From: Sulfodiicoccus acidiphilus
Lineage (GTDB): Archaea > Thermoproteota > Thermoprotei_A > Sulfolobales > Sulfolobaceae
Length of the DNA stretch: 64,000 nucleotides
Assembly (NCBI RefSeq): GCF_003967175.1
Contig: NZ_AP018553.1
Coordinates: 1,599,982 to 1,663,981, forward strand
Direction: 5' to 3'
How positions within the stretch are numbered: the first letter of the stretch is position 1; every line of letters starts with the position of its first letter. The position numbers and the translations under genes were made by a program. The notes under the pieces are model-generated. The model was not told the DNA's origin, did not search any database, and saw only the letters and a program-made list of their open reading frames with translations. Below are positions 28,929 through 42,268 of this stretch, piece by piece.

Positions 28929-29843
28929 TCACAGAGGTGGATCCACTACTAACGCACCGGTCCCATAGTAGACCATGATTCTCCTCTTCAAGGAGGCCGC
29001 GAACTTCTTGGCTTCCTCCAGGGCCCTGTTCTCGTCATCGTAGACCCCCAGGGATTCTAGTGTTTCGGGGTTTACTACGGTGTACTCCCGCAGGACTTTC
29101 GTCAACACGTGAGGGACCTCGTACCCAGACGCCGTTCCCGTCTTAGGCGACACTATCCTCCTCTCCCTCAAGGCCTTGAGCACCTCTTCCGACACTTCCT
29201 TCCCCTCTAGGAGATCCTTCAGGGGCCTCGCCACGTCTTCCCTCAATGTCACCGGTACCCTAGGCAGGAACACCAGGTGGTCGAAGCTCTCGTGAAGGTA
29301 GTAGACGTCGACGTCGTAGAGCATGCCGAGCAAAGTGAGGTAAGCCCCCTCCGGCTTCAGGCCTGGTGAGGCGTGGAGGTAAACTCTGTCTCCAGCGGCG
29401 AGGGACTCGCTTATAGAAACGGCGACCTCGTTCGTCAGTTCCTCCATTCCACGCTCGAACTCACCTTGTCCTATCGACCTGATCGTCTTAGTTTCCACTG
29501 GTATTCCCCTCCCCTCCAACACCCGTTTGACCGCCTCTCCCGCCAGCGTGCCAGTGGGCGTGTTGGTGGCCACGAGGACCACCCGATCGCATCCAACCTC
29601 TTTCTGGGCCTTGAAGAGCCCGTTGAGCTCAGCTGACCTCCTCTCTGGGTCCCCGTTCAGGAAGTCCACCAACTTCCCTAGGAGGAAATCGTGATTTCGT
29701 CTCACCGTTTCTTGGAGCGGCGAGTCGAGTGGGATCCTAGATAAGTCCTGGTTTATCCCCAGGCCATTCATTAACTCCTGTTCCGTCCTGTAGAAGTGAC
29801 CGAGGGAGGAAGTACCCACCAACGAGATGTGAACCTTCCCCAT
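28929..29843 (-). CDS. CARF-domain protein, APE2256 / Crn1-like family
   Basis: Start ATG 29843 gives MGKVHISLVGTSSLGHF (304 residues) and is placed 26 bases after the TATA-like AATATTAAG; an upstream ATG at 29864 is less likely. The CARF features are the glycine-rich GTSSLG at residues 10-15, the conserved block RRSAELNGLFKAQ near 75, and HASPGLKPEGAYLTLLGML near 153. This family includes ring nucleases that cleave cyclic tetra-adenylate (Crn1) as well as sensors. The C-terminal part, from about residue 220, is helical and winged-helix-like. It is downstream on the same strand of a HerA-NurA pair. Whether it degrades or only senses a ligand is not visible here. Confidence 0.85.
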   Translation of the reverse strand: MGKVHISLVGTSSLGHFYRTEQELMNGLGINQDLSRIPLDSPLQETVRRNHDFLLGKLVDFLNGDPERRSAELNGLFKAQKEVGCDRVVLVATNTPTGTLAGEAVKRVLEGRGIPVETKTIRSIGQGEFERGMEELTNEVAVSISESLAAGDRVYLHASPGLKPEGAYLTLLGMLYDVDVYYLHESFDHLVFLPRVPVTLREDVARPLKDLLEGKEVSEEVLKALRERRIVSPKTGTASGYEVPHVLTKVLREYTVVNPETLESLGVYDDENRALEEAKKFAASLKRRIMVYYGTGALVVDPPL

Positions 29844-29998
29844 GGCGAACTGTTCAGGGGTCATCTTAATATTCGTTTCTATTCGCCAGATCTCCTCGGG
29901 ACAGCCTCTGGAAGTCCACTTCTAACTCCCTTCCGACGTATCCGTTCCCACGAACCCCGATTAGGGTGGAAAGTTCCATTGTCCTAGATCGAGTACCG

Positions 29999-31585
29999 CT
30001 ACGAGTTTGTCTCACTTTCCTCCTGGAACTTGAGGGCCCTGAAGGCAACGTCGTGCACTCCGACGGCGAAGGACCTCAACACTCCCAAGCCAGGCGGAGC
30101 TACCCTCAGTAGCCCCGAGTACTCCTCCATCTCAACCCTCTTCAGCGCGTCCTGATCCGCCCTCAGTGCGATCTTCGTGTTGGTGAGGGTGAGCACGATG
30201 TCGTTGAGGTCGGTGGGCCTGTGGGTGGCCAACACAGTCCCTATTCCCCTCACCCTACCCAATCTCATCAACCTGTTTATCATCCTCTCCATGGACTCCT
30301 TCCCCTCCTCCCTCCTGCCCTGTGGGAAGAACTCGTGGGCCTCGTCGAACACCAGCAGCATGGGGGTCTCCTTTCCCTCCTCCCTGTACCTCCTGTCCGC
30401 CATCTGGAAGAGCCTGGTGGCGACCACGAAGGCCGCCAGCACAGCTGACTGAACCCCTTCCTCTGCGGCCCAGCGCAGGTCGACCACCGTCACCCCAAAG
30501 CCCAGCTCCTCGTAGTCTGGCTCCCCGAGGTAGTTCCCACCCAACTTGACGTCCACGAGGCCAGTGTTCCTGAGCGCGTAGACCGACCTGGTTATGTTGT
30601 CGACGGTTTGTTGGTGCACCTTGAACTTGCTCAGGGACCTGGAACAGGTCTCCCAACTCTCTAGGTCTCCTCTACACTCCCTGGCCGCCTGCTTGAAGAA
30701 GTATGCGCCCTGAGCGCTGAAGAAGGGGGAGACGTCAGCTAGGAGCCCGTAACTCTCCCCGGACCTCACGCCGAACGGCCTGAGCCTGAAGGTCCTACTG
30801 CCGTCGGATAGGACGAATTCCGGCCCATCGTTCACCTCTATCGCCCGGAACCTCTCCAGGCCGCTCCTCCTCAGGAAGGTGTTCATGAAATCCGTGGGCC
30901 TTTCGTACCGGCCCGCTACTGGGACCAGCACCCTTCCTCCCGACGCGACAGCGGTGGAAACGTAGTCTCCTTGGACGTCGAACACCACCACTGGCCTCTC
31001 CGAGCCCGACACCAGCACCCTGAGGAGGTTAGTCTTCCCCGCACCGGTCGTGCCCACCACGAGGACGTGGTGCCTCAGGACTTCCCAGGTGAGCCTGAGG
31101 TCGACTCCCGACTCCCTGTGTCCCTCTGCCACGACACCGATCTTCACCCCGTCCACCGGAACTCCGAGCATCTTCCTCAGGAACTCCCTTCCTGGAAGGA
31201 AGACTGGGCTCTGTGGGTCTACGGGAGAGGTGGGTGGGACGACCTCACCTTGGACGTCCTCCGAGAGGAGCTCCAGCTCCAAGGCGAGGGGCGTGGTTAT
31301 GGCTGAGAGGTCCTCGGCCGGGGAGATGGCCGGCACCCTAGACACGGCGAGTATGTCAGCCCTCTCCACCGCCCTCACCCTGCCCAGGATCAGCGTCCCC
31401 GCCACTACCGGCGCCACCCCTAGGTAAGTTCCCACCCCCAACCTACGTCCTAAGTAGACCTGGAATGGAACCTCCACCCTTATCTCGGCCCTCTCCATGC
31501 CGTGCGATATGGGGACGACCCTGGAGGCCAGTCCGATCACCTCCCCCTCCTTGGAGGCCCTCTCCTTGGCCTCCCTGAACATCAT
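29999..31585 (-). CDS. HerA-like hexameric DNA translocase ATPase
   Basis: The protein has about 528 residues. The N-terminal 130 residues form the HerA beta-barrel domain. Walker A VLVVGTTGAGKTNL lies near residue 178, Walker B LLVFDEAHEFFPQG near 410, and the arginine-finger/sensor region TVLATHRPTDLNDIVLTLTN near 450. Start ATG 31585 overlaps the NurA stop as ATGA, which decides it against a GTG or other start upstream. HerA normally works with NurA in DNA end resection; this pair is flanked by two CARF genes, so it may be a defence-dedicated copy rather than the recombination one. Confirming that would need a check for a second HerA-NurA pair in the genome. Confidence 0.9.
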   Translation of the reverse strand: MMFREAKERASKEGEVIGLASRVVPISHGMERAEIRVEVPFQVYLGRRLGVGTYLGVAPVVAGTLILGRVRAVERADILAVSRVPAISPAEDLSAITTPLALELELLSEDVQGEVVPPTSPVDPQSPVFLPGREFLRKMLGVPVDGVKIGVVAEGHRESGVDLRLTWEVLRHHVLVVGTTGAGKTNLLRVLVSGSERPVVVFDVQGDYVSTAVASGGRVLVPVAGRYERPTDFMNTFLRRSGLERFRAIEVNDGPEFVLSDGSRTFRLRPFGVRSGESYGLLADVSPFFSAQGAYFFKQAARECRGDLESWETCSRSLSKFKVHQQTVDNITRSVYALRNTGLVDVKLGGNYLGEPDYEELGFGVTVVDLRWAAEEGVQSAVLAAFVVATRLFQMADRRYREEGKETPMLLVFDEAHEFFPQGRREEGKESMERMINRLMRLGRVRGIGTVLATHRPTDLNDIVLTLTNTKIALRADQDALKRVEMEEYSGLLRVAPPGLGVLRSFAVGVHDVAFRALKFQEESETNS

Positions 31586-32649
31586 TGAGAGAGCTCCTTC
31601 AGTGCCTCCTGGTACCAGTTCCAAGACTCGTAGCTCACCCCCACTAATTGATGGGCGTAGAGGAAAGCCTGAACGAAAGAGGCGGAGCCTAGCCTCCTAG
31701 ATAACCTGTCAGCCACCTCTATGAACGTCGGAATTCCCCTGAAGGAGGAGTGGAGGAGCGCCGTCCTCACCCCGGGACAGAGGAGGTCAGGGTTGGACGA
31801 CTCAACCCTGAAGGCAGAGTCCCTCACCCTCACGTATGTCATGTACCTGGAGACCTCCTCTTCACCTACCTTGACGTCCTCCTTGAGGACCGGGGAGACG
31901 TAAATCGCCTTCCCCCTCCCTAGGTCCAGGGTCAGCACCTCGTCCGAGGAGTCGGAACCGAGGGCCCGGGCCAACTTCCTGCTGAACTCCAACCTCTTCA
32001 CGATCCCCACTAAGTCTGGAAGCCTAGGTAGCCTCTCCTTCAGGAGTTGCTGGAAAGCGGCCTCGTACTTCGGGCCCATAGTGCTGGGGAACGGCCCCGG
32101 CACCACGGGCCCGTCCACGAATGTGATTCTATTCGAGGAGGTCACCGCGTAGTTCTCTAGGGAGATCCTGAGCTCGTCTAGGACGTTGTCCTCCTTGTAG
32201 TCCTGATCGTACAACTCGCCCGCTGGGCTCCTCAGCCGAACCAACTCGGAAAGCGTGGGATCCGAGGAGACTGCGGAGGCCACCTCCCTAGAGGCCTTGA
32301 GTCCCACGAAGGGGAACCTGGCCGGCGGGATCGTGAAGTGGTTCCCACCGTCGTTGGCGTATAGGGAGGCGACGAGGATCCTCGCCCCCCTCACGCTCAA
32401 CGTCCTGGAAGAGCTGTCCAGGTACGCGAACTCATCTAGGGGACCGCATTTCCCGAGCTCTCCCAGGAGGGTAACGGGGCCAGCCACCTCTCTCAGGCCG
32501 GGCTCCCCAGGCCCCAAGTAGGGTTTCTCCCTAGCTACTTGGGAGAGGAGCTCCATCAGCCTCCTGAAGACGTTGTGGGAGTCAAGGAATTGGAGGCGAA
32601 TCTCCAGGCTGGGGACCTTCGCTTCCCCCGAGGCACCCCCGCCCACCAT
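31582..32649 (-). CDS. NurA-domain nuclease
   Basis: The protein has 355 residues. The NurA motif I FAYLDSSSRTLSVRGARILV lies near residue 75, with the metal-binding Asp. TFVDGPVVPGPFPS near 172 is the second acidic motif, and GVRTALLHSSFRGIPTFIEV and DRLSRRLG near 305-325 complete the family core. NurA is a manganese-dependent 5'-3' exonuclease and single-strand endonuclease. Its stop overlaps the HerA start (ATGA), so they are co-translated. It has its own leaderless-type promoter (CTTTATTA at 32672-32679). Confidence 0.88.
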   Translation of the reverse strand: MVGGGASGEAKVPSLEIRLQFLDSHNVFRRLMELLSQVAREKPYLGPGEPGLREVAGPVTLLGELGKCGPLDEFAYLDSSSRTLSVRGARILVASLYANDGGNHFTIPPARFPFVGLKASREVASAVSSDPTLSELVRLRSPAGELYDQDYKEDNVLDELRISLENYAVTSSNRITFVDGPVVPGPFPSTMGPKYEAAFQQLLKERLPRLPDLVGIVKRLEFSRKLARALGSDSSDEVLTLDLGRGKAIYVSPVLKEDVKVGEEEVSRYMTYVRVRDSAFRVESSNPDLLCPGVRTALLHSSFRGIPTFIEVADRLSRRLGSASFVQAFLYAHQLVGVSYESWNWYQEALKELSQ

Positions 32650-32771
32650 AAAGAAAAGAACAGAAGATTCCTAATAAAGATTACCACTCCTCACCTCAGG
32701 ACGATCGGCCATATCCTACATAGGCCACCCTTAGGGCGGGCTCGCACGTCTCCGCCTGGGCGTCCGGGAGC

Positions 32772-33311
32772 TCAGTGGAGGAGTACTGTGACGGCCTGGG
32801 GGGAGAGGAGGGAACAGAGGGATGTGTCTTTGGAACAGCCCGCACTGAGGTCGAGGGAGTTTTCGTTCAGCTTCCTCGCCTCCTCCGTCACCCTGGCGTA
32901 CTCCTTGGTGCTGATTAAAGTGGTGAGCACGTGGGCACCCCTCTCCCTGGCCACAACCGCTGCCGCGACACTCATCACCTTCCTCCCCCCAGTGACGTCG
33001 ACGTAGTCGCCTGGGGAGACTAGCTTCAAGACAGCTCCCCTGAACTTAGCGTAGTCCTCGGGAGAGTCAACGTCGTTCAGGTCGAGGGGAACGTCCCGAA
33101 GAGGGGGACTCTCCTTCACGCAACACAAGAGGAGGGCCCTCAGGATCCTGAAGGCCCTCTCCACTTCCTCTCCCCTAGTCCTCACTACGTAGATCTCGTC
33201 TATCTTGACCGGTTGGTTCACCCCCAGGGAGGCATAGGTCCCCCTCCTCAGGTTTACGAGGCTCTCCACGAGGCCTCCAGGCGACGTGCCGAGAGTTGAA
33301 ATCAACTTCAC
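32772..33311 (-). CDS. CARF-domain protein (NE0113/Csx14-like)
   Basis: The protein has 179 residues. It starts KLISTLGTSPGGLVESLVNL, a CARF beta1/glycine-rich loop, and has YVDVTGGRKVMSVAAAVVAR near residue 102, the conserved DxTGGRK block of Csx14/Csm6-type CARF proteins. The rest resembles a short C-terminal helix, with no nuclease domain such as HEPN visible. A small CARF protein of this kind can be a ring nuclease or a ligand sensor. Its GTG start at 33311 lies 26 bases after a TATA-like element at 33332-33343. It is upstream of the NurA-HerA pair, 122 bases away, on the same strand. Confidence 0.8.
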   Translation of the reverse strand: MKLISTLGTSPGGLVESLVNLRRGTYASLGVNQPVKIDEIYVVRTRGEEVERAFRILRALLLCCVKESPPLRDVPLDLNDVDSPEDYAKFRGAVLKLVSPGDYVDVTGGRKVMSVAAAVVARERGAHVLTTLISTKEYARVTEEARKLNENSLDLSAGCSKDTSLCSLLSPQAVTVLLH

Positions 33312-33624
33312 GCGGTGACGGTTGGTTCTCCAGTAAAAAAGGTATCCCCTTCGCCGCTCTCTACTGGAGGGCGACGAACGCGTCGACTCTCACCACACCC
33401 TCCTTATAACCTAATTCGCTTCCACCAGCTCCACAATTCGCCTTCAAACAACGGCACTTAGGACTTCTGGGGACCACCTCGACCTGGACTTCCGTACCTC
33501 CCCGTCATAGTACAGGCGCTTACTTACGTCGTCCAGTCGCACTCATCGCTGCCAGTCACGGAGGTGTCACCGAAGGTCTTCCCCAGCGCAACAAACCTTT
33601 TATCTCCTCTTCCAATTCCCGCAC
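33312..33624. other. Divergent promoter region between CARF and Csa1 genes
   Basis: It contains two promoter-like elements: CCTTTTTTAC (33332-33343, minus-strand CARF gene) and AACCTTTTATC (33594-33603, plus-strand Csa1 gene). Nothing else is recognisable. Confidence 0.5.
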
Positions 33625-34533
33625 GTGTTCTTTACACCCGAGGACGTGGCCCTCTACGCCAAGAGGGTTAGGCAGACGCCCAGGCAAGTGGGAGAAGAGA
33701 TGAGGGGGTGGCGGTGGCCAGAACCACCTCTCCTCCCCCCTTCCGGCAGGACCCTCCCCGTCTCTGACGCTTCAGGGGCCCTCTGTCAAACCGGAAGGTA
33801 CGTCTACCTATCGTACGTCAAGTGGGTCAAAGCTCCGACTTCCCCGGAGGCAGCTAGGGGATCCCTAATACATGAGGCCTACGCCGAAAGCGTGGAGACC
33901 GTGAGGAAGCTCATCTACTCTGGTGAGGTGGTCGACGGTAACGCCCTGAGGTCGGCCATGCTTGACGAGTACTACGAGGCTGAGAGGAGGCTCTCCGAGT
34001 ACTCCTCCGTCCAGGACTTCCACAACGTAGTTAAGGCCATTTGGGACAGGGCTACGAGCGTCTTCGGCGCCTCTCTGGACAGGGCGAGGGAGAGGGCCAG
34101 GGGAAGGAGGGAGACCCTGGCCGCTGCCACCATCCCCTTCTTGGTCGAGTTCCCCATAGACGGGTCCCTGGTAGGTCTAAGCCCAAACTCGAGGGTGGAC
34201 GCGCTCATCCCCAACGTCCCCCTCGTGGTAGAGATGAAGACCGGAGCGAGGAGGAGGGCTCACGAGAGGGCCCTGGCGGGATACGCCCTAGCCTACGAGA
34301 GCCAGTACGAGGTGCCCGTGGACTTCGGCCTGCTGTGTTACGTCAGGGTGGAAGACAAGGTGAGCGACAGGTGTGAACTCCTGAAGATAGGTGAGGCCCT
34401 GAGGACTGAGTTCCTAGAGGAGAGGGATCGTAGGTTGCAAGTGTTGGAGGATGGGGTAGATCCGGGACTGCCAAAGTTCTGCGACAGGGAGTGTCCTTTC
34501 CTGAGTCACTGTGGTGGTAAGGTGGTTCAGTGA
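33625..34533 (+). CDS. csa1: Csa1 (Cas4-like exonuclease of type I-A CRISPR systems)
   Basis: The protein has 302 residues. The N-terminal MFFTPEDVALYAKRVRQTPR and the region EEMRGWRWPEPPLLPP are characteristic of Csa1. A cysteine near residue 53 (GALCQTGRYVYL) and the C-terminal block CDRECPFLSHCGG form the iron-sulphur cluster ligands. GSLIHEAYAES near 78 and RVDALIPNVPLVVEMKTGAR near 190 carry the RecB-like His, Asp, Glu and Lys. Csa1 helps trim and orient spacer precursors during adaptation. It is not next to cas1/cas2 here; the adaptation genes of this window are 28 kb away with their own Cas4. GTG start at 33625 fits a leaderless transcript. Confidence 0.85.
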   Translation: MFFTPEDVALYAKRVRQTPRQVGEEMRGWRWPEPPLLPPSGRTLPVSDASGALCQTGRYVYLSYVKWVKAPTSPEAARGSLIHEAYAESVETVRKLIYSGEVVDGNALRSAMLDEYYEAERRLSEYSSVQDFHNVVKAIWDRATSVFGASLDRARERARGRRETLAAATIPFLVEFPIDGSLVGLSPNSRVDALIPNVPLVVEMKTGARRRAHERALAGYALAYESQYEVPVDFGLLCYVRVEDKVSDRCELLKIGEALRTEFLEERDRRLQVLEDGVDPGLPKFCDRECPFLSHCGGKVVQ

Positions 34534-35915: not shown

Positions 35916-36704
35916 GTGAGCGGCGAAATAATATCGAGGTGGTTCGCGGGTAAGATAGACGAGATAGCAGCGAAGATAACGGAAGGAAAGACTCTCGCTC
36001 CGGACGAGTCCACGATGGTATTGTATTACCTCATGAAAGAGGAGGTCGTTAAGGAGAGTGTTAAGACTAGGGAGGCAGTCAGGGACCTTGAGACTAGGTT
36101 GACGTCCAGAATTGACGCCGTTGAGAGGAATCTCACGGCCGGTCAGAAGTCCCTCGAGGCCAACCAGAAGTCCCTCGAGGCCAACCAGAAGTCCCTCGAG
36201 GCCAACCAGAAGTCCCTCGAGGCCAACCAGAAGTCCCTCGAGGCCAACCAGAAGTCCCTCGAGGCCAACCAGAAGTCCCTCGAGGCCAACCAGAAGTCCC
36301 TCGAGGCCAACCAGAAGTCCCTCGATAACAAGATCGACAGCAACTACGCTAAGCTAAATAAGGCAATAGAACAACTCAGGTCCGACCTAGGCCTTGTAGC
36401 CGAGGAGACCTTCATGAATAGGGTGTTGGGCTTTCTCGAGAGGAAAGGAGAGAAGGTCGTAGACGTGGATAGGGGAGTGGAAACTCCGAGGGGAGAGGTT
36501 GACGCTGTGATAGTCTGTGAGGGCAAGGTGTACGTGGTGGAGGTCAAATTGAAGGTCGAATTGAGCGACGTCGACGAAGTTAAGTCGAGGGCAGTGGAAG
36601 TGGAGAAGTCCTACGGACTCAAGGCCCTCCCCGTGATCACGGGAGCGAGGATGGGAAAACACGTTAAGACCTACGCTACGGGTATTGGCGTCATAACGGT
36701 CTAA
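35916..36704 (+). CDS. Coiled-coil protein with C-terminal PD-(D/E)XK nuclease domain (DUF3782-like)
   Basis: The protein has 262 residues. Residues 1-75 are helical. Residues 77-132 are eight perfect copies of the heptad QKSLEAN plus a ninth partial copy, a long parallel coiled coil with Leu every seventh residue. The C-terminal 100 residues have ETPRGEVDAVIVCEGKVYVV then EVKLKVEL, the D...ExK layout of PD-(D/E)XK nucleases of the archaeal Holliday-junction-resolvase-like type. Similar proteins in Sulfolobales are often named DUF3782. The heptad length is set by a 21-bp tandem repeat, so length may vary between strains. Confidence 0.8.
   Translation: MSGEIISRWFAGKIDEIAAKITEGKTLAPDESTMVLYYLMKEEVVKESVKTREAVRDLETRLTSRIDAVERNLTAGQKSLEANQKSLEANQKSLEANQKSLEANQKSLEANQKSLEANQKSLEANQKSLEANQKSLDNKIDSNYAKLNKAIEQLRSDLGLVAEETFMNRVLGFLERKGEKVVDVDRGVETPRGEVDAVIVCEGKVYVVEVKLKVELSDVDEVKSRAVEVEKSYGLKALPVITGARMGKHVKTYATGIGVITV
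36144..36325 (+). repeat. Coding tandem repeat, 21-bp unit, 8 perfect copies
   Basis: The unit is CAGAAGTCCCTCGAGGCCAAC. Eight copies run without mismatch from 36144 to 36311, then a partial copy (CAGAAGTCCCTCGA). Every unit keeps the reading frame and encodes QKSLEAN, so changes in copy number lengthen or shorten the coiled coil by exactly two helical turns. Confidence 0.95.
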
Positions 36705-38228: not shown

Positions 38229-39515
<1,287 letters not shown>

Positions 39516-39969
39516 TGGCGGCGGCCTTTAAGAGGATTTCGGAGGAAGACGAGTTATAGACTTCCCCTAACGGTTGTCACCTCGAAACTTAAGGTTGGGG
39601 CAGTTGAGAATACGAAGACTCGTCGTAGATAGCGAGCTGCCCACGACCGAGGATCCCAACGCTAAGGTGGGGCTCAACGGAGAGATCCCTCTACTATCGC
39701 GGAACTGGGGGGTTCCATAGGGTGGGTTCCTACAGGCCTGAAAACGTTCCAGAGGATAGGTACATCTCCATCGACGTAGGTCTACGTAGCCGTCTTCGTT
39801 TTCGACGAGGGAAGAGACTCCGTGAATCCCCTCCTCTCTTCGGGGAATCTCCCGTTTCCTCACAAATTAGAACCTCGTTGGGGAAGTGAAAGGTAGATTG
39901 TAACCTATGCCTCTTTCGTTTCCCCAGGGTATTACTGTACCGTTCTTCGCAACCACTATTTCTCCACCT
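39516..39969. other. Gene-free stretch
   Basis: No credible reading frame. TTTAAGAG at 39528-39535 may be the TATA-like element of the CARF gene on the minus strand. Confidence 0.4.
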
Positions 39970-40659: not shown

Positions 40660-41479
40660 TTACCCCAATTCCCAAGGAACGTACGGTAGTAACACCTGCA
40701 ACTCTTCGAGTAAAGCTCATTAATGTCGTTAAATTTAAGGTATTATAAAGTTAACTCGACCTACCGGACACGGTTGGGGAGGTGACTCAACCTGCCTTCC
40801 ACCGCTTCCTCGCCGGAGCTCCTTGCTACACTGAACCCGTCGGCACGAGGTGGGTTCGCAATTGGAAGGTCCTCGGTCGAAACGACGTTCGAATACAGCT
40901 GTGGAGACCACAGCCCTCCCGCTCGCGTCCTCGGAAATAGAACGTCGCAACCCTCCCTCTGGAGGAGACTTTCAAAACGTCGCGTTCACGGAGAAGATCG
41001 CATCTCGAAAATTGGAGCTGGACACAGCTTCAACCGTCCCTCGAACCACCTAGACAGTCGACATACTCAGCACACGTCGATCTGACGTCCACGACTAGTT
41101 CGTTGAGTGGTAGGGGTTAGGCTAAGTCCTGAAGCAGTCGAAGAGAGCTGGTTCCAAGGAGGATCGCCTAAGTGAGGCCTCCACACCTTCCACGACGAGA
41201 GTTACGAACAACTCACGTCAGACGTCCTCGGTGGCGGGCCCATACAATTCCACTTAAAGTAGCCCCAGCAGGGACGTCCCGTCTCCAGGGGCGTTTGGTC
41301 TCCGCGCCCCGTAGAGCGTCAGGTGATCCAGGGAGCAGTGTGGGGGTCAACCCGTTGCCTATTAGGAACTACTCCACACCAGCCTCCAACGCGTACCCGT
41401 GAGGAGTCTACTCGTCGACTCGTGTGCAGCCTCTCCGAATAACCGCTCTGCTTATTTCCCCGCCCTCTTAACTGCTCTA
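40660..41479. other. Gene-free stretch before Cas6
   Basis: No credible reading frame or known motif, apart from a TATA-like CTTATTTCC at 41450-41458 that belongs to the Cas6 gene. Confidence 0.45.
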
Positions 41480-42268
41480 GTGATAGTGAAGGCCGAATTC
41501 GGGGTGAGGTCCAAGGAGGAACTAGTAGTCCAACCCTTCTCTTCCAAGGTCTCGAGGACGGCCCTCATTCAAGCGAGCGAGAGCTACAGGAAGGCAGCAG
41601 AGTCAAACGAACCCCTCAAACCCTTCAGGGTCACGGCCCTAAGGACAGAGAGAGGCGTCCTCTACTCCAGGGGTCAGGGCTTCGTGAAGCTCTTCCCGGA
41701 CGTCCAGTACACCTTCTCCGCCACCTCAATCCAGGAGGACTTCACCGAAGAGTTGCTATCCAAACCGGCGTTCAGCTTCGAGATATACGGCAAGAAGCTC
41801 CTCTGCGAACTCCTCAAGCTAGAGGTAGTGAACCACCTGGACGTATCGGCGCAGGAATCGAGGCTCTACAAGGTGAACTTCCTCACCCCCACCCTCCTCC
41901 AGTTTCCGAGGCCCAGGCTCAAGAGGAAGAAGAACAGGTACATTCTCTTTCCGTATCCTCCTGTAATGTTCTCGTCGCTGGCCCAGCACTGGAACAGGTA
42001 CTTCAGCCCCCCCGTCAGTAGGGCCACCGGGACGAGGGCACTGTACTTCTTCAGGGAGGTGGACTACTCCCTCTCACCCGTCACCGTGAGGTACGACGAG
42101 GGGTTCGTGAGGGGCTTCGTGGGGTGGGTGCTATACTCCCTCGAGGCCAGGAAGGGGAGTAAGTTGAGAGCGGACGTCAGGAGGTTGTTGGCCTACGCCA
42201 ACTACGTGGGGGTGGGGAAGTCGAGGAGCGTCGGGTTCGGGGAGGTTATCGTTAAAGAGACAAGCTGA
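41480..42268 (+). CDS. cas6: Cas6 CRISPR pre-crRNA endoribonuclease (type I-D/III style)
   Basis: Start GTG 41480 fits a leaderless transcript (TATA-like element 26 bases upstream) better than GTG 41399, whose extra N-terminus is unlike the family. The protein has about 262 residues, with two ferredoxin-like domains. The C-terminal glycine-rich loop reads YVGVGKSRSVGFGEVIV near residue 245, the hallmark of Cas6. RRLLAYANYVGVG contains the substrate-binding helix. It would cut CRISPR transcripts within repeats. It lies 1.1 kb upstream of a large helicase on the same strand and is a different family member from the Cas6 at 57817-58539. Confidence 0.82.
   Translation: MIVKAEFGVRSKEELVVQPFSSKVSRTALIQASESYRKAAESNEPLKPFRVTALRTERGVLYSRGQGFVKLFPDVQYTFSATSIQEDFTEELLSKPAFSFEIYGKKLLCELLKLEVVNHLDVSAQESRLYKVNFLTPTLLQFPRPRLKRKKNRYILFPYPPVMFSSLAQHWNRYFSPPVSRATGTRALYFFREVDYSLSPVTVRYDEGFVRGFVGWVLYSLEARKGSKLRADVRRLLAYANYVGVGKSRSVGFGEVIVKETS

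What the first reader, a model, noticed from the sequence alone, without database searches (positions are those of the whole stretch)
28929..33311. HerA-NurA pair flanked by two CARF proteins in one strand-consistent cluster
In transcription order: a small NE0113/Csx14-like CARF protein (32772-33311), NurA (31582-32649), HerA (29999-31585, ATGA overlap with NurA) and an APE2256/Crn1-like CARF protein (28929-29843). HerA-NurA normally serves recombination. CARF domains bind cyclic oligoadenylate, so the arrangement could couple a second-messenger signal to DNA translocation and cutting. No cas10 is present to make the messenger, so it would depend on another locus. This is a candidate for a not-yet-described CARF-dependent resection system.
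Basis: partly seen in the sequence, partly recalled or inferred. Interest (0 to 1): 0.82.

Follow-up and report, generated by a model that had tools for sequence, protein, structure and literature searches.

The report
CRISPR-linked HerA-NurA pair beside ring nucleases
A heat-loving archaeon carries an extra copy of a DNA-unwinding-and-cutting enzyme pair, normally used for DNA repair, inside its CRISPR antiviral region and next to two enzymes that probably erase the CRISPR alarm molecule; a similar cluster was described in 2012 in other archaea, so this is a new variant of a known but unexplained partnership.

Summary
All four genes are present at the stated coordinates, but two labels change. 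The small CARF protein (32772-33311) is a Crn1 (Sso2081-type) ring nuclease, not Csx14. The larger one (28929-29843) is a Sis0811/SSO1393-type ring nuclease with catalytic Ser and Lys kept. NurA and HerA overlap and look intact. The genome has three other NurA genes.

The sandwich order is not conserved in the window's own HerA clade: 1 of 14 has APE2256 nearby. Yet 7 of 14 lie near CRISPR parts, against 2 of 70 other HerA loci. In a separate Thermoproteales-like clade, 20 of 20 HerA loci have an APE2256 CARF gene within 3 kb. That cluster (nurA-csm6-herA) was published in 2012, so the association is real and already known in kind.

The cluster lies about 32 kb from large CRISPR arrays and 83 kb from a Cas10. 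Its three parts have separate promoter-like boxes.

Best reading: a CRISPR-recruited HerA-NurA DNA-degrading pair in a CRISPR accessory island, with neighbouring ring nucleases that quench cA4. Direct CARF control of NurA-HerA is possible but unshown. Novelty: new variant of a known kind.

The parts
32772..33311 (-). Crn1 (Sso2081/Sis0455-type) CARF ring nuclease, GTG start
   Evidence: NF040581 220.2 bits, cut-off 125; phmmer to 7z55 E 4.5e-34 and SSO2081 7yhl E 3.7e-32; GTS at 8-10, GGRK at 108-111, Tyr in KEYA
31582..32649 (-). NurA nuclease, 355 aa
   Evidence: PF09376 49.5 bits, cut-off 21; AlphaFold model pLDDT 83.8, its 13 best PDB matches are NurA or TM1739 structures; invariant acidic positions across 13 relatives
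29999..31585 (-). HerA-like hexameric helicase, 528 aa, ATGA overlap with NurA
   Evidence: PF01935 44.1 and PF05872 42.5 bits over cut-offs; Walker A GTTGAGKT and Walker B FDEAHE invariant or nearly so in 13 relatives
28929..29843 (-). APE2256-family CARF protein with C-terminal domain, Sis0811/SSO1393-type ring nuclease
   Evidence: PF09651 109.8 bits; AlphaFold pLDDT 89.5; Foldseek to Sis0811 7pq3 E 4.1e-20, TM 0.74; Ser12 and Lys163 present
32671..32678 (-). TATA-like AT-rich box upstream of NurA
   Evidence: 7 of 8 A/T; 6.8% of random window positions reach this
33334..33340 (-). TATA-like box upstream of Crn1
   Evidence: 7 of 8 A/T
29866..29873 (-). TATA-like box upstream of the APE2256 start at 29843
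   Evidence: 8 of 8 A/T; 1.1% of random positions reach this
33625..34533 (+). Csa1 (Cas4-type nuclease), divergent neighbour; also a neighbour of the pair in the same-genus genome G021
   Evidence: PF06023 299 bits, TIGR01896 275 bits; L052
34734..35330 (+). DnaQ/PolB-like 3'-5' exonuclease, weak match
   Evidence: PF10108 23.4 bits, just under cut-off 24
38536..39264 (-). second APE2256/SSO1393 gene, N-terminal part out of frame (broken or pseudogene)
   Evidence: PF22165 133.5 and PF09651 96.9 bits; NF040951 matched only from position 84; N-terminal pieces lie in two other frames upstream
41399..42268 (+). Cas6
   Evidence: PF17952 71.1 and PF10040 66.4 bits
57817..61948 (-). type I-B genes: Cas6, Cas7/Csh2, Cas8b/TM1802

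Best explanation
The window holds a paralogous HerA-NurA pair that has been recruited into a CRISPR accessory island. HerA threads double-stranded DNA into the NurA nuclease, and the pair probably degrades invader DNA during CRISPR immunity. Crn1 and the APE2256-type protein beside it are ring nucleases that remove cA4 made by the Cas10 complex encoded 83 kb away, so they are neighbours that share an island and a purpose rather than subunits of one machine. Shown here: gene identities, conserved active-site motifs, island context and statistical association. Inferred: DNA degradation as the role, cA4 cleavage by these two proteins, and use of the distant Cas10's messenger.
For: NurA/HerA identity and intact motifs. 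CRISPR parts within 8 kb in 7 of 14 loci of the window's HerA clade against 2 of 70 loci outside the two CRISPR-linked clades, Fisher p 2.3e-5. Metallosphaera-type relatives carry the pair downstream of or beside type I-A cas genes and Csa3, and one has a CRISPR array 1.6 kb from HerA. The same-genus genome has Cas4, Csa1 and Csx1 around the pair. Own genome: arrays at 1664810-1680863 and 1688612-1701835, Cas1, Cas10 with HD and GGDE motifs. Both CARFs carry ring-nuclease residues, and three promoter-like boxes separate the units. T. kodakarensis HerA-NurA cuts both strands of dsDNA and its authors suggest an antiviral role (PMC12977600, passages).
Against: Half of the clade (7 of 14) has no CRISPR part in reach, so a repair or other role is possible. 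The Cas10 is 83 kb away, and 3 of 13 family genomes with the pair have no detected Cas10 against 2 of 18 without the pair, so the pair does not track Cas10. The HMM seeds for several cas families came from loci of the same clade (ascertainment bias); with window-seeded families and arrays only the count is 6 of 14 against 2 of 70. No activity was measured. The relatives are few and related, so the p-values overstate independence.
Confidence: 0.45

Rival explanations
1. CARF-gated DNA degradation: one or both CARF proteins bind cA4 and physically switch the HerA-NurA complex on or off.
For: APE2256 CARF genes lie within 3 kb of HerA in 20 of 20 loci of the Thermoproteales-like clade, often touching or overlapping NurA or HerA. 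One such locus has APE2256-NurA-HerA-APE2256 on one strand (L159/L072). CARF partners of different kinds recur beside the pair (APE2256, Crn1, Csx1, Csa3). In the linked Thermoproteales CARFs the full Thr-Ser-Lys ring-nuclease signature is kept in 3 of 23 against 33 of 34 solitary ones, as expected of sensors.
Against: The partner family varies, there is no fusion, and the window's own CARFs keep the ring-nuclease signature. Promoter-like boxes separate the units. Ser and Lys are still both present in 18 of the 23 linked CARFs, so loss of catalysis is not shown.
Confidence: 0.2
2. Spacer-acquisition helper: HerA-NurA makes DNA fragments that Csa1 and the nearby 3'-5' exonuclease trim into new spacers.
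For: Csa1 is divergent beside the cluster in the window and near the pair in G021, which also has Cas4. Csa1 or Cas4 lies within 8 kb in several Thermoproteales-like loci (L156, L170, L172, L174, L176). Bernick et al. 2012 proposed a role in adaptation (PMC3396285, passages).
Against: The nearest Cas1 is about 31 kb away. The exonuclease match is under its cut-off and was found near a pair in only one other fetched locus (L058). Adaptation genes are absent from most loci of the clade.
Confidence: 0.17
3. Chance neighbours: a repair paralog that happens to sit in a CRISPR-rich region.
For: 7 of 14 loci of the clade lack CRISPR parts and sit beside transporters. The window's APE2256 groups with solitary proteins, not with linked ones. 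The genome has a canonical-type HerA/NurA elsewhere.
Against: Enrichment of CRISPR parts, 7 of 14 against 2 of 70, recurring in several genera and beside different CRISPR types.
Confidence: 0.18

Closest known systems
nurA-csm6-herA cluster of Pyrobaculum and other Thermoproteales (Bernick et al. 2012, PMC3396285)
   Same: Paralogous NurA-HerA with an APE2256-family CARF gene near CRISPR arrays; several HerA-NurA paralogs per genome
   Different: Here APE2256 follows HerA instead of lying between the two genes, Crn1 is added upstream, HerA falls in a different clade in the free tree (AU p 0.068 for one joint clade), and the CARF keeps the ring-nuclease signature
Crn1 / Sso2081 ring nuclease
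   Same: Small CARF, GTS and GGRK motifs, NCBIfam cut-off met
   Different: Lies beside NurA-HerA and Csa1, 83 kb from Cas10
Sis0811 / SSO1393 ring nuclease (APE2256 family)
   Same: Full-length fold match, catalytic Ser and Lys kept
   Different: 32% identity in the fold alignment; C-terminal domain not matched by the SSO1393-like winged-helix Pfam model; long branch in the CARF tree
Canonical archaeal HerA-NurA (DNA end resection)
   Same: Fold, overlapping genes, Walker motifs
   Different: NCBIfam HerA models far below cut-off (69.7 against 970); not in a Mre11-Rad50 setting in the window
PADLOC HerA/NurA 'Type III coevolved' models (PDLC01055/PDLC01056)
   Same: Window HerA 196 bits, NurA 82 bits
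   Different: The HerA model is not specific: the genome's own paralog scores 137 and the canonical-type HerA 81, while Thermoproteales-like linked HerAs score 495-584

Membership tests
NurA | NurA domain (PF09376) over cut-off | tested here: met
   49.5 bits, cut-off 21
NurA | NurA fold | tested here: met
   AlphaFold model, best Foldseek match 2ygk NurA E 8.8e-9, TM only 0.44
NurA | Mn-dependent nuclease activity with HerA | not testable with these tools
   needs purified protein
HerA | HerA central and C-terminal domains with Walker A and B | tested here: met
Canonical archaeal HerA (NF040819/NF040937) | equivalog cut-off | tested here: not met
   69.7 against 970 and 44.2 against 800
Crn1 ring nuclease | NF040581 cut-off | tested here: met
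   220.2 against 125
Crn1 ring nuclease | Thr-Ser, Arg-Lys and Tyr residues named for Sso2081 (PMC10018336, passages) | tested here: met
   GTS, GGRK and Tyr in the aligned helical insert
Crn1 ring nuclease | cleaves cA4 | not testable with these tools
   biochemical assay needed
Sis0811/SSO1393 ring nuclease | APE2256 CARF domain and catalytic Ser/Lys (S12, K169 in the PDB titles) | tested here: met
   PF09651 109.8 bits; Ser12 and Lys163 in the GLKPE motif
Sis0811/SSO1393 ring nuclease | SSO1393-like winged-helix domain (PF22165) | tested here: inconclusive
   no Pfam match, but 268 alignment columns to full-length Sis0811; C-terminal pLDDT 55-79 in the last blocks
Csx14 / NE0113 | TIGR03642 or PF09623 cut-off | tested here: not met
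   20.6 against 90.35; 18.8 against 23
nurA-csm6-herA cluster | NurA, HerA and APE2256 genes together | tested here: met
nurA-csm6-herA cluster | APE2256 gene between nurA and herA | tested here: not met
   NurA and HerA overlap; APE2256 lies after HerA
nurA-csm6-herA cluster | same HerA clade as the Thermoproteales cluster | tested here: inconclusive
   separate in the free trees; joint clade not rejected, AU p 0.068
nurA-csm6-herA cluster | next to a CRISPR array | tested here: not met
   nearest array about 32 kb away
cA4-activated CARF effector | cA4 binding changes effector activity | not testable with these tools
   biochemical assay needed

The most novel reading that the evidence does not exclude
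HerA-NurA is a recurrent arm of archaeal CRISPR immunity that has been joined to CARF proteins more than once. In Thermoproteales-like archaea a CARF protein with an altered ring-nuclease site is the sensor that gates HerA-NurA, and in the window's lineage the ring nucleases beside the pair act as a timer that limits how long invader DNA is degraded.
Probability: 0.18. Interest if true: 0.8.

Novelty: new variant of a known kind. Interest (0 to 1): 0.48.

Why it matters
HerA-NurA is known as a repair resection motor. If a paralogous pair is a regular part of archaeal CRISPR immunity, it would give these systems a processive DNA-degrading arm and a possible source of spacer DNA. The survey narrows the open question left by the 2012 report: it defines two CRISPR-linked HerA clades, shows that the CARF partner changes between lineages, and shows that the partner's ring-nuclease signature is altered in one clade and intact in the window. 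That makes the sensor-versus-eraser question testable with named proteins.

Tried and rejected
Rejected: Csx14/NE0113 label for the small CARF. Rejected: conservation of the four-gene order in the family; 1 of 14 loci of the window's HerA clade has APE2256. Rejected as specific evidence: the PADLOC 'Type III coevolved' label, because paralogs also match it. Rejected: absence of Cas10; TIGR02577 missed it but PF22335 found it, barely over its cut-off, 28.2 against 27. Looked for and not found: CARF-NurA or CARF-HerA fusions. Inconclusive: common origin of the two CRISPR-linked HerA clades (AU p 0.068). Not useful: the PF09651 search in the order of G050 (10 genomes); phmmer of NurA against PDB sequences, 2 chance-level matches. 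Class-level APE2256 search: 40 of 147 genomes match; comparing those places with the NurA places by eye, only the window's genome has an APE2256 gene within 5 kb of a NurA gene, but few Thermoproteales-like genomes were in that sample and the match list was cut. Rows dropped before the census counts: named loci L062-L069, L072-L076 and L078, several of them copies of G-genome loci, were left out of the HerA tree; L055 (broken HerA); several fragmentary or low-scoring matches were not fetched (for example G448:C122, G094, G457, G069, G020:C1:90992). HerA genes near APE2256 in L246 and L255 were not in the census, because only three candidates per genome were scored. Two of the 74 APE2256 sequences (L272 at 4929 and L169 at 7691) were dropped as too short from the CARF tree.
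Full report
Observation. Pfam confirms NurA, HerA and an APE2256-family CARF protein over their cut-offs. NCBIfam identifies the small CARF protein as the ring nuclease Crn1, 220.2 bits against a cut-off of 125, and not Csx14. NurA and HerA overlap by 4 nt. Gaps of 122 and 155 nt separate them from Crn1 and APE2256. AT-rich boxes lie at -18 to -40 of Crn1, NurA and the APE2256 start at 29843; random positions reach 7 of 8 A/T in 6.8% and 8 of 8 in 1.1% of cases. HerA has no such box. The four genes are therefore probably three transcription units, although no transcript data were available.

The proteins. NurA's AlphaFold model (pLDDT 83.8) matches NurA structures best (2ygk, E 8.8e-9), although with TM-scores of only about 0.4. 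HerA keeps Walker A and B, which are invariant or nearly so across 13 relatives. The large CARF protein's model (pLDDT 89.5) matches the Sis0811 and SSO1393 structures over 266-268 alignment columns (TM 0.71-0.75 by the query). It keeps Ser12 and has Lys163 in the GLKPE motif; the Sis0811 mutants S12A and S12G/K169G are named in the PDB titles. The small CARF keeps GTS, GGRK and the helical-insert Tyr, residues reported as important in Sso2081 (PMC10018336, passages). Both CARFs are therefore predicted ring nucleases. Hoikkala et al. [quoted passage not shown]

The genome. The window's assembly is one contig of 2,353,189 bases. It has four NurA matches and seven DUF87 matches. CRISPR arrays begin just right of the window at 1664810, about 32 kb from the cluster, and continue with an interruption to 1701835. 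The window itself holds Cas6 genes and type I-B genes. Cas1 genes lie at 1663592 and 1686620. A Cas10 lies at 1713271-1715862 with an HD motif and GGDE in the palm (read by eye), beside RAMP genes over the Csx7 cut-off. Its own support is modest: PF22335 28.2 bits against 27 and Csm1 47 against 170.

Close relatives. A NurA match at E 1e-29 or better was found in 13 of 31 family genomes including the window's own. None of the 12 others has Crn1 or APE2256 beside the pair. Several are in CRISPR surroundings all the same. In L042 the pair follows Cas6, Csa3, Csa5, Csa2, Cas3 and Cas3-HD genes on one strand. In L043 it sits beside Cas6 and Csa3. In L044 Csa3 is directly upstream of NurA. In L048 a CRISPR array starts 1.6 kb from HerA. 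In the same-genus genome G021 (L052) the neighbours are Cas4, Csx1 and Csa1. Distances to Cas10 and Crn1 in the genome are short more often than expected: 6 of 9 and 7 of 11 within 100 kb, expected 1.2 and 1.5. Five of these genomes belong to one genus, so this is suggestive only. Presence of the pair does not track Cas10: 10 of 13 genomes with it and 16 of 18 without it have a Cas10 match.

Distant relatives. A HerA profile searched against 398 genomes of the phylum matched 78. I fetched neighbourhoods and annotated them with profiles built here. A HerA tree of 104 loci plus an outgroup holds a clade of 20, mostly from two families outside the window's class that I take for Thermoproteales (named members are Thermoproteota, Caldivirga and Thermocladium MAGs). 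In it 20 of 20 loci have an APE2256 gene within 3 kb and 10 of 20 have an array within 8 kb. The window's clade of 14 has CRISPR parts within 8 kb in 7, a CARF gene within 3 kb in 4, and APE2256 within 3 kb in 1. The remaining 70 loci have 2 with CRISPR parts (L232, L077) and 1 with a CARF (L077). Fisher tests give p 2.3e-5 for CRISPR parts in the window's clade and 4.5e-18 in the Thermoproteales-like clade; kinship among loci makes these too small. Some family profiles were seeded from the window's clade. With only window-seeded families and arrays the window's clade still has 6 of 14 against 2 of 70, p 1.7e-4. Arrays alone do not separate it (2 of 14 against 1 of 70, p 0.07). Pfam independently confirmed the APE2256 assignment in 5 of 6 linked proteins checked; the sixth was below cut-off.

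History. The free HerA tree places the window's clade with non-CRISPR paralogs and not with the Thermoproteales-like clade, but a joint clade is not rejected (AU p 0.068). The window's APE2256 groups with solitary ring-nuclease-like proteins (support 0.905, long branch 1.42) and not with the HerA-linked ones. The association may therefore have arisen more than once. The linked proteins keep the Thr-Ser-Lys signature in 3 of 23 complete sequences, against 33 of 34 solitary ones. The loss is mostly of the Thr; Ser and Lys are both present in 18 of 23. The window's protein keeps all three.

Interpretation. I favour a CRISPR-recruited HerA-NurA pair that degrades invader DNA, with ring nucleases as neighbours that quench the signal (0.45). 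CARF gating of the pair (0.2), a role in spacer acquisition (0.17) and chance neighbourhood (0.18) remain open. T. kodakarensis HerA-NurA cleaves both strands of dsDNA, and its authors raise antiviral defence and cite the Pyrobaculum cluster (PMC12977600, passages).

Novelty. Bernick et al. 2012 (PMC3396285, passages) described nurA-csm6-herA beside CRISPR arrays and stated that csm6 there was previously named APE2256. Makarova-type classification (PMC12669027, passages) had no HerA or NurA in its main text. My paper searches found no account of the arrangement with Crn1 and APE2256 seen here, but the library lacks most subscription journals. I file it as a new variant of a known kind.

Noticed in passing
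38536-39550: The ortholog of the SSO1393/Sis0811 ring nuclease looks broken: its N-terminal parts lie in two other frames, which suggests two frameshifts, while the divergent APE2256 gene next to HerA is intact.
   Followed up: partly
35916-36704: A protein with eight or more tandem copies of a 21-nt unit (reading S-L-E-A-N-Q-K) as a coiled coil in front of a PD-(D/E)XK-like C-terminal part.
   Followed up: no
genome C1:1713271-1715862 (L151:3271-5862): Cas10 reads GGDE instead of the usual GGDD in the palm and scores low on standard models.
   Followed up: partly
L246 and L255: A more distant HerA gene lies within a few kb of APE2256 (and Crn1 and Csa1 in L255), with no NurA detected by the profile used.
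   Followed up: no
L077:7170-11131: A Desulfurococcales contig has APE2256, Cas4, NurA and HerA together; its CARF groups with solitary ones, another possible independent pairing.
   Followed up: partly
33625-34533: Csa1 stands without Cas1; the nearest Cas1 is about 31 kb away.
   Followed up: partly
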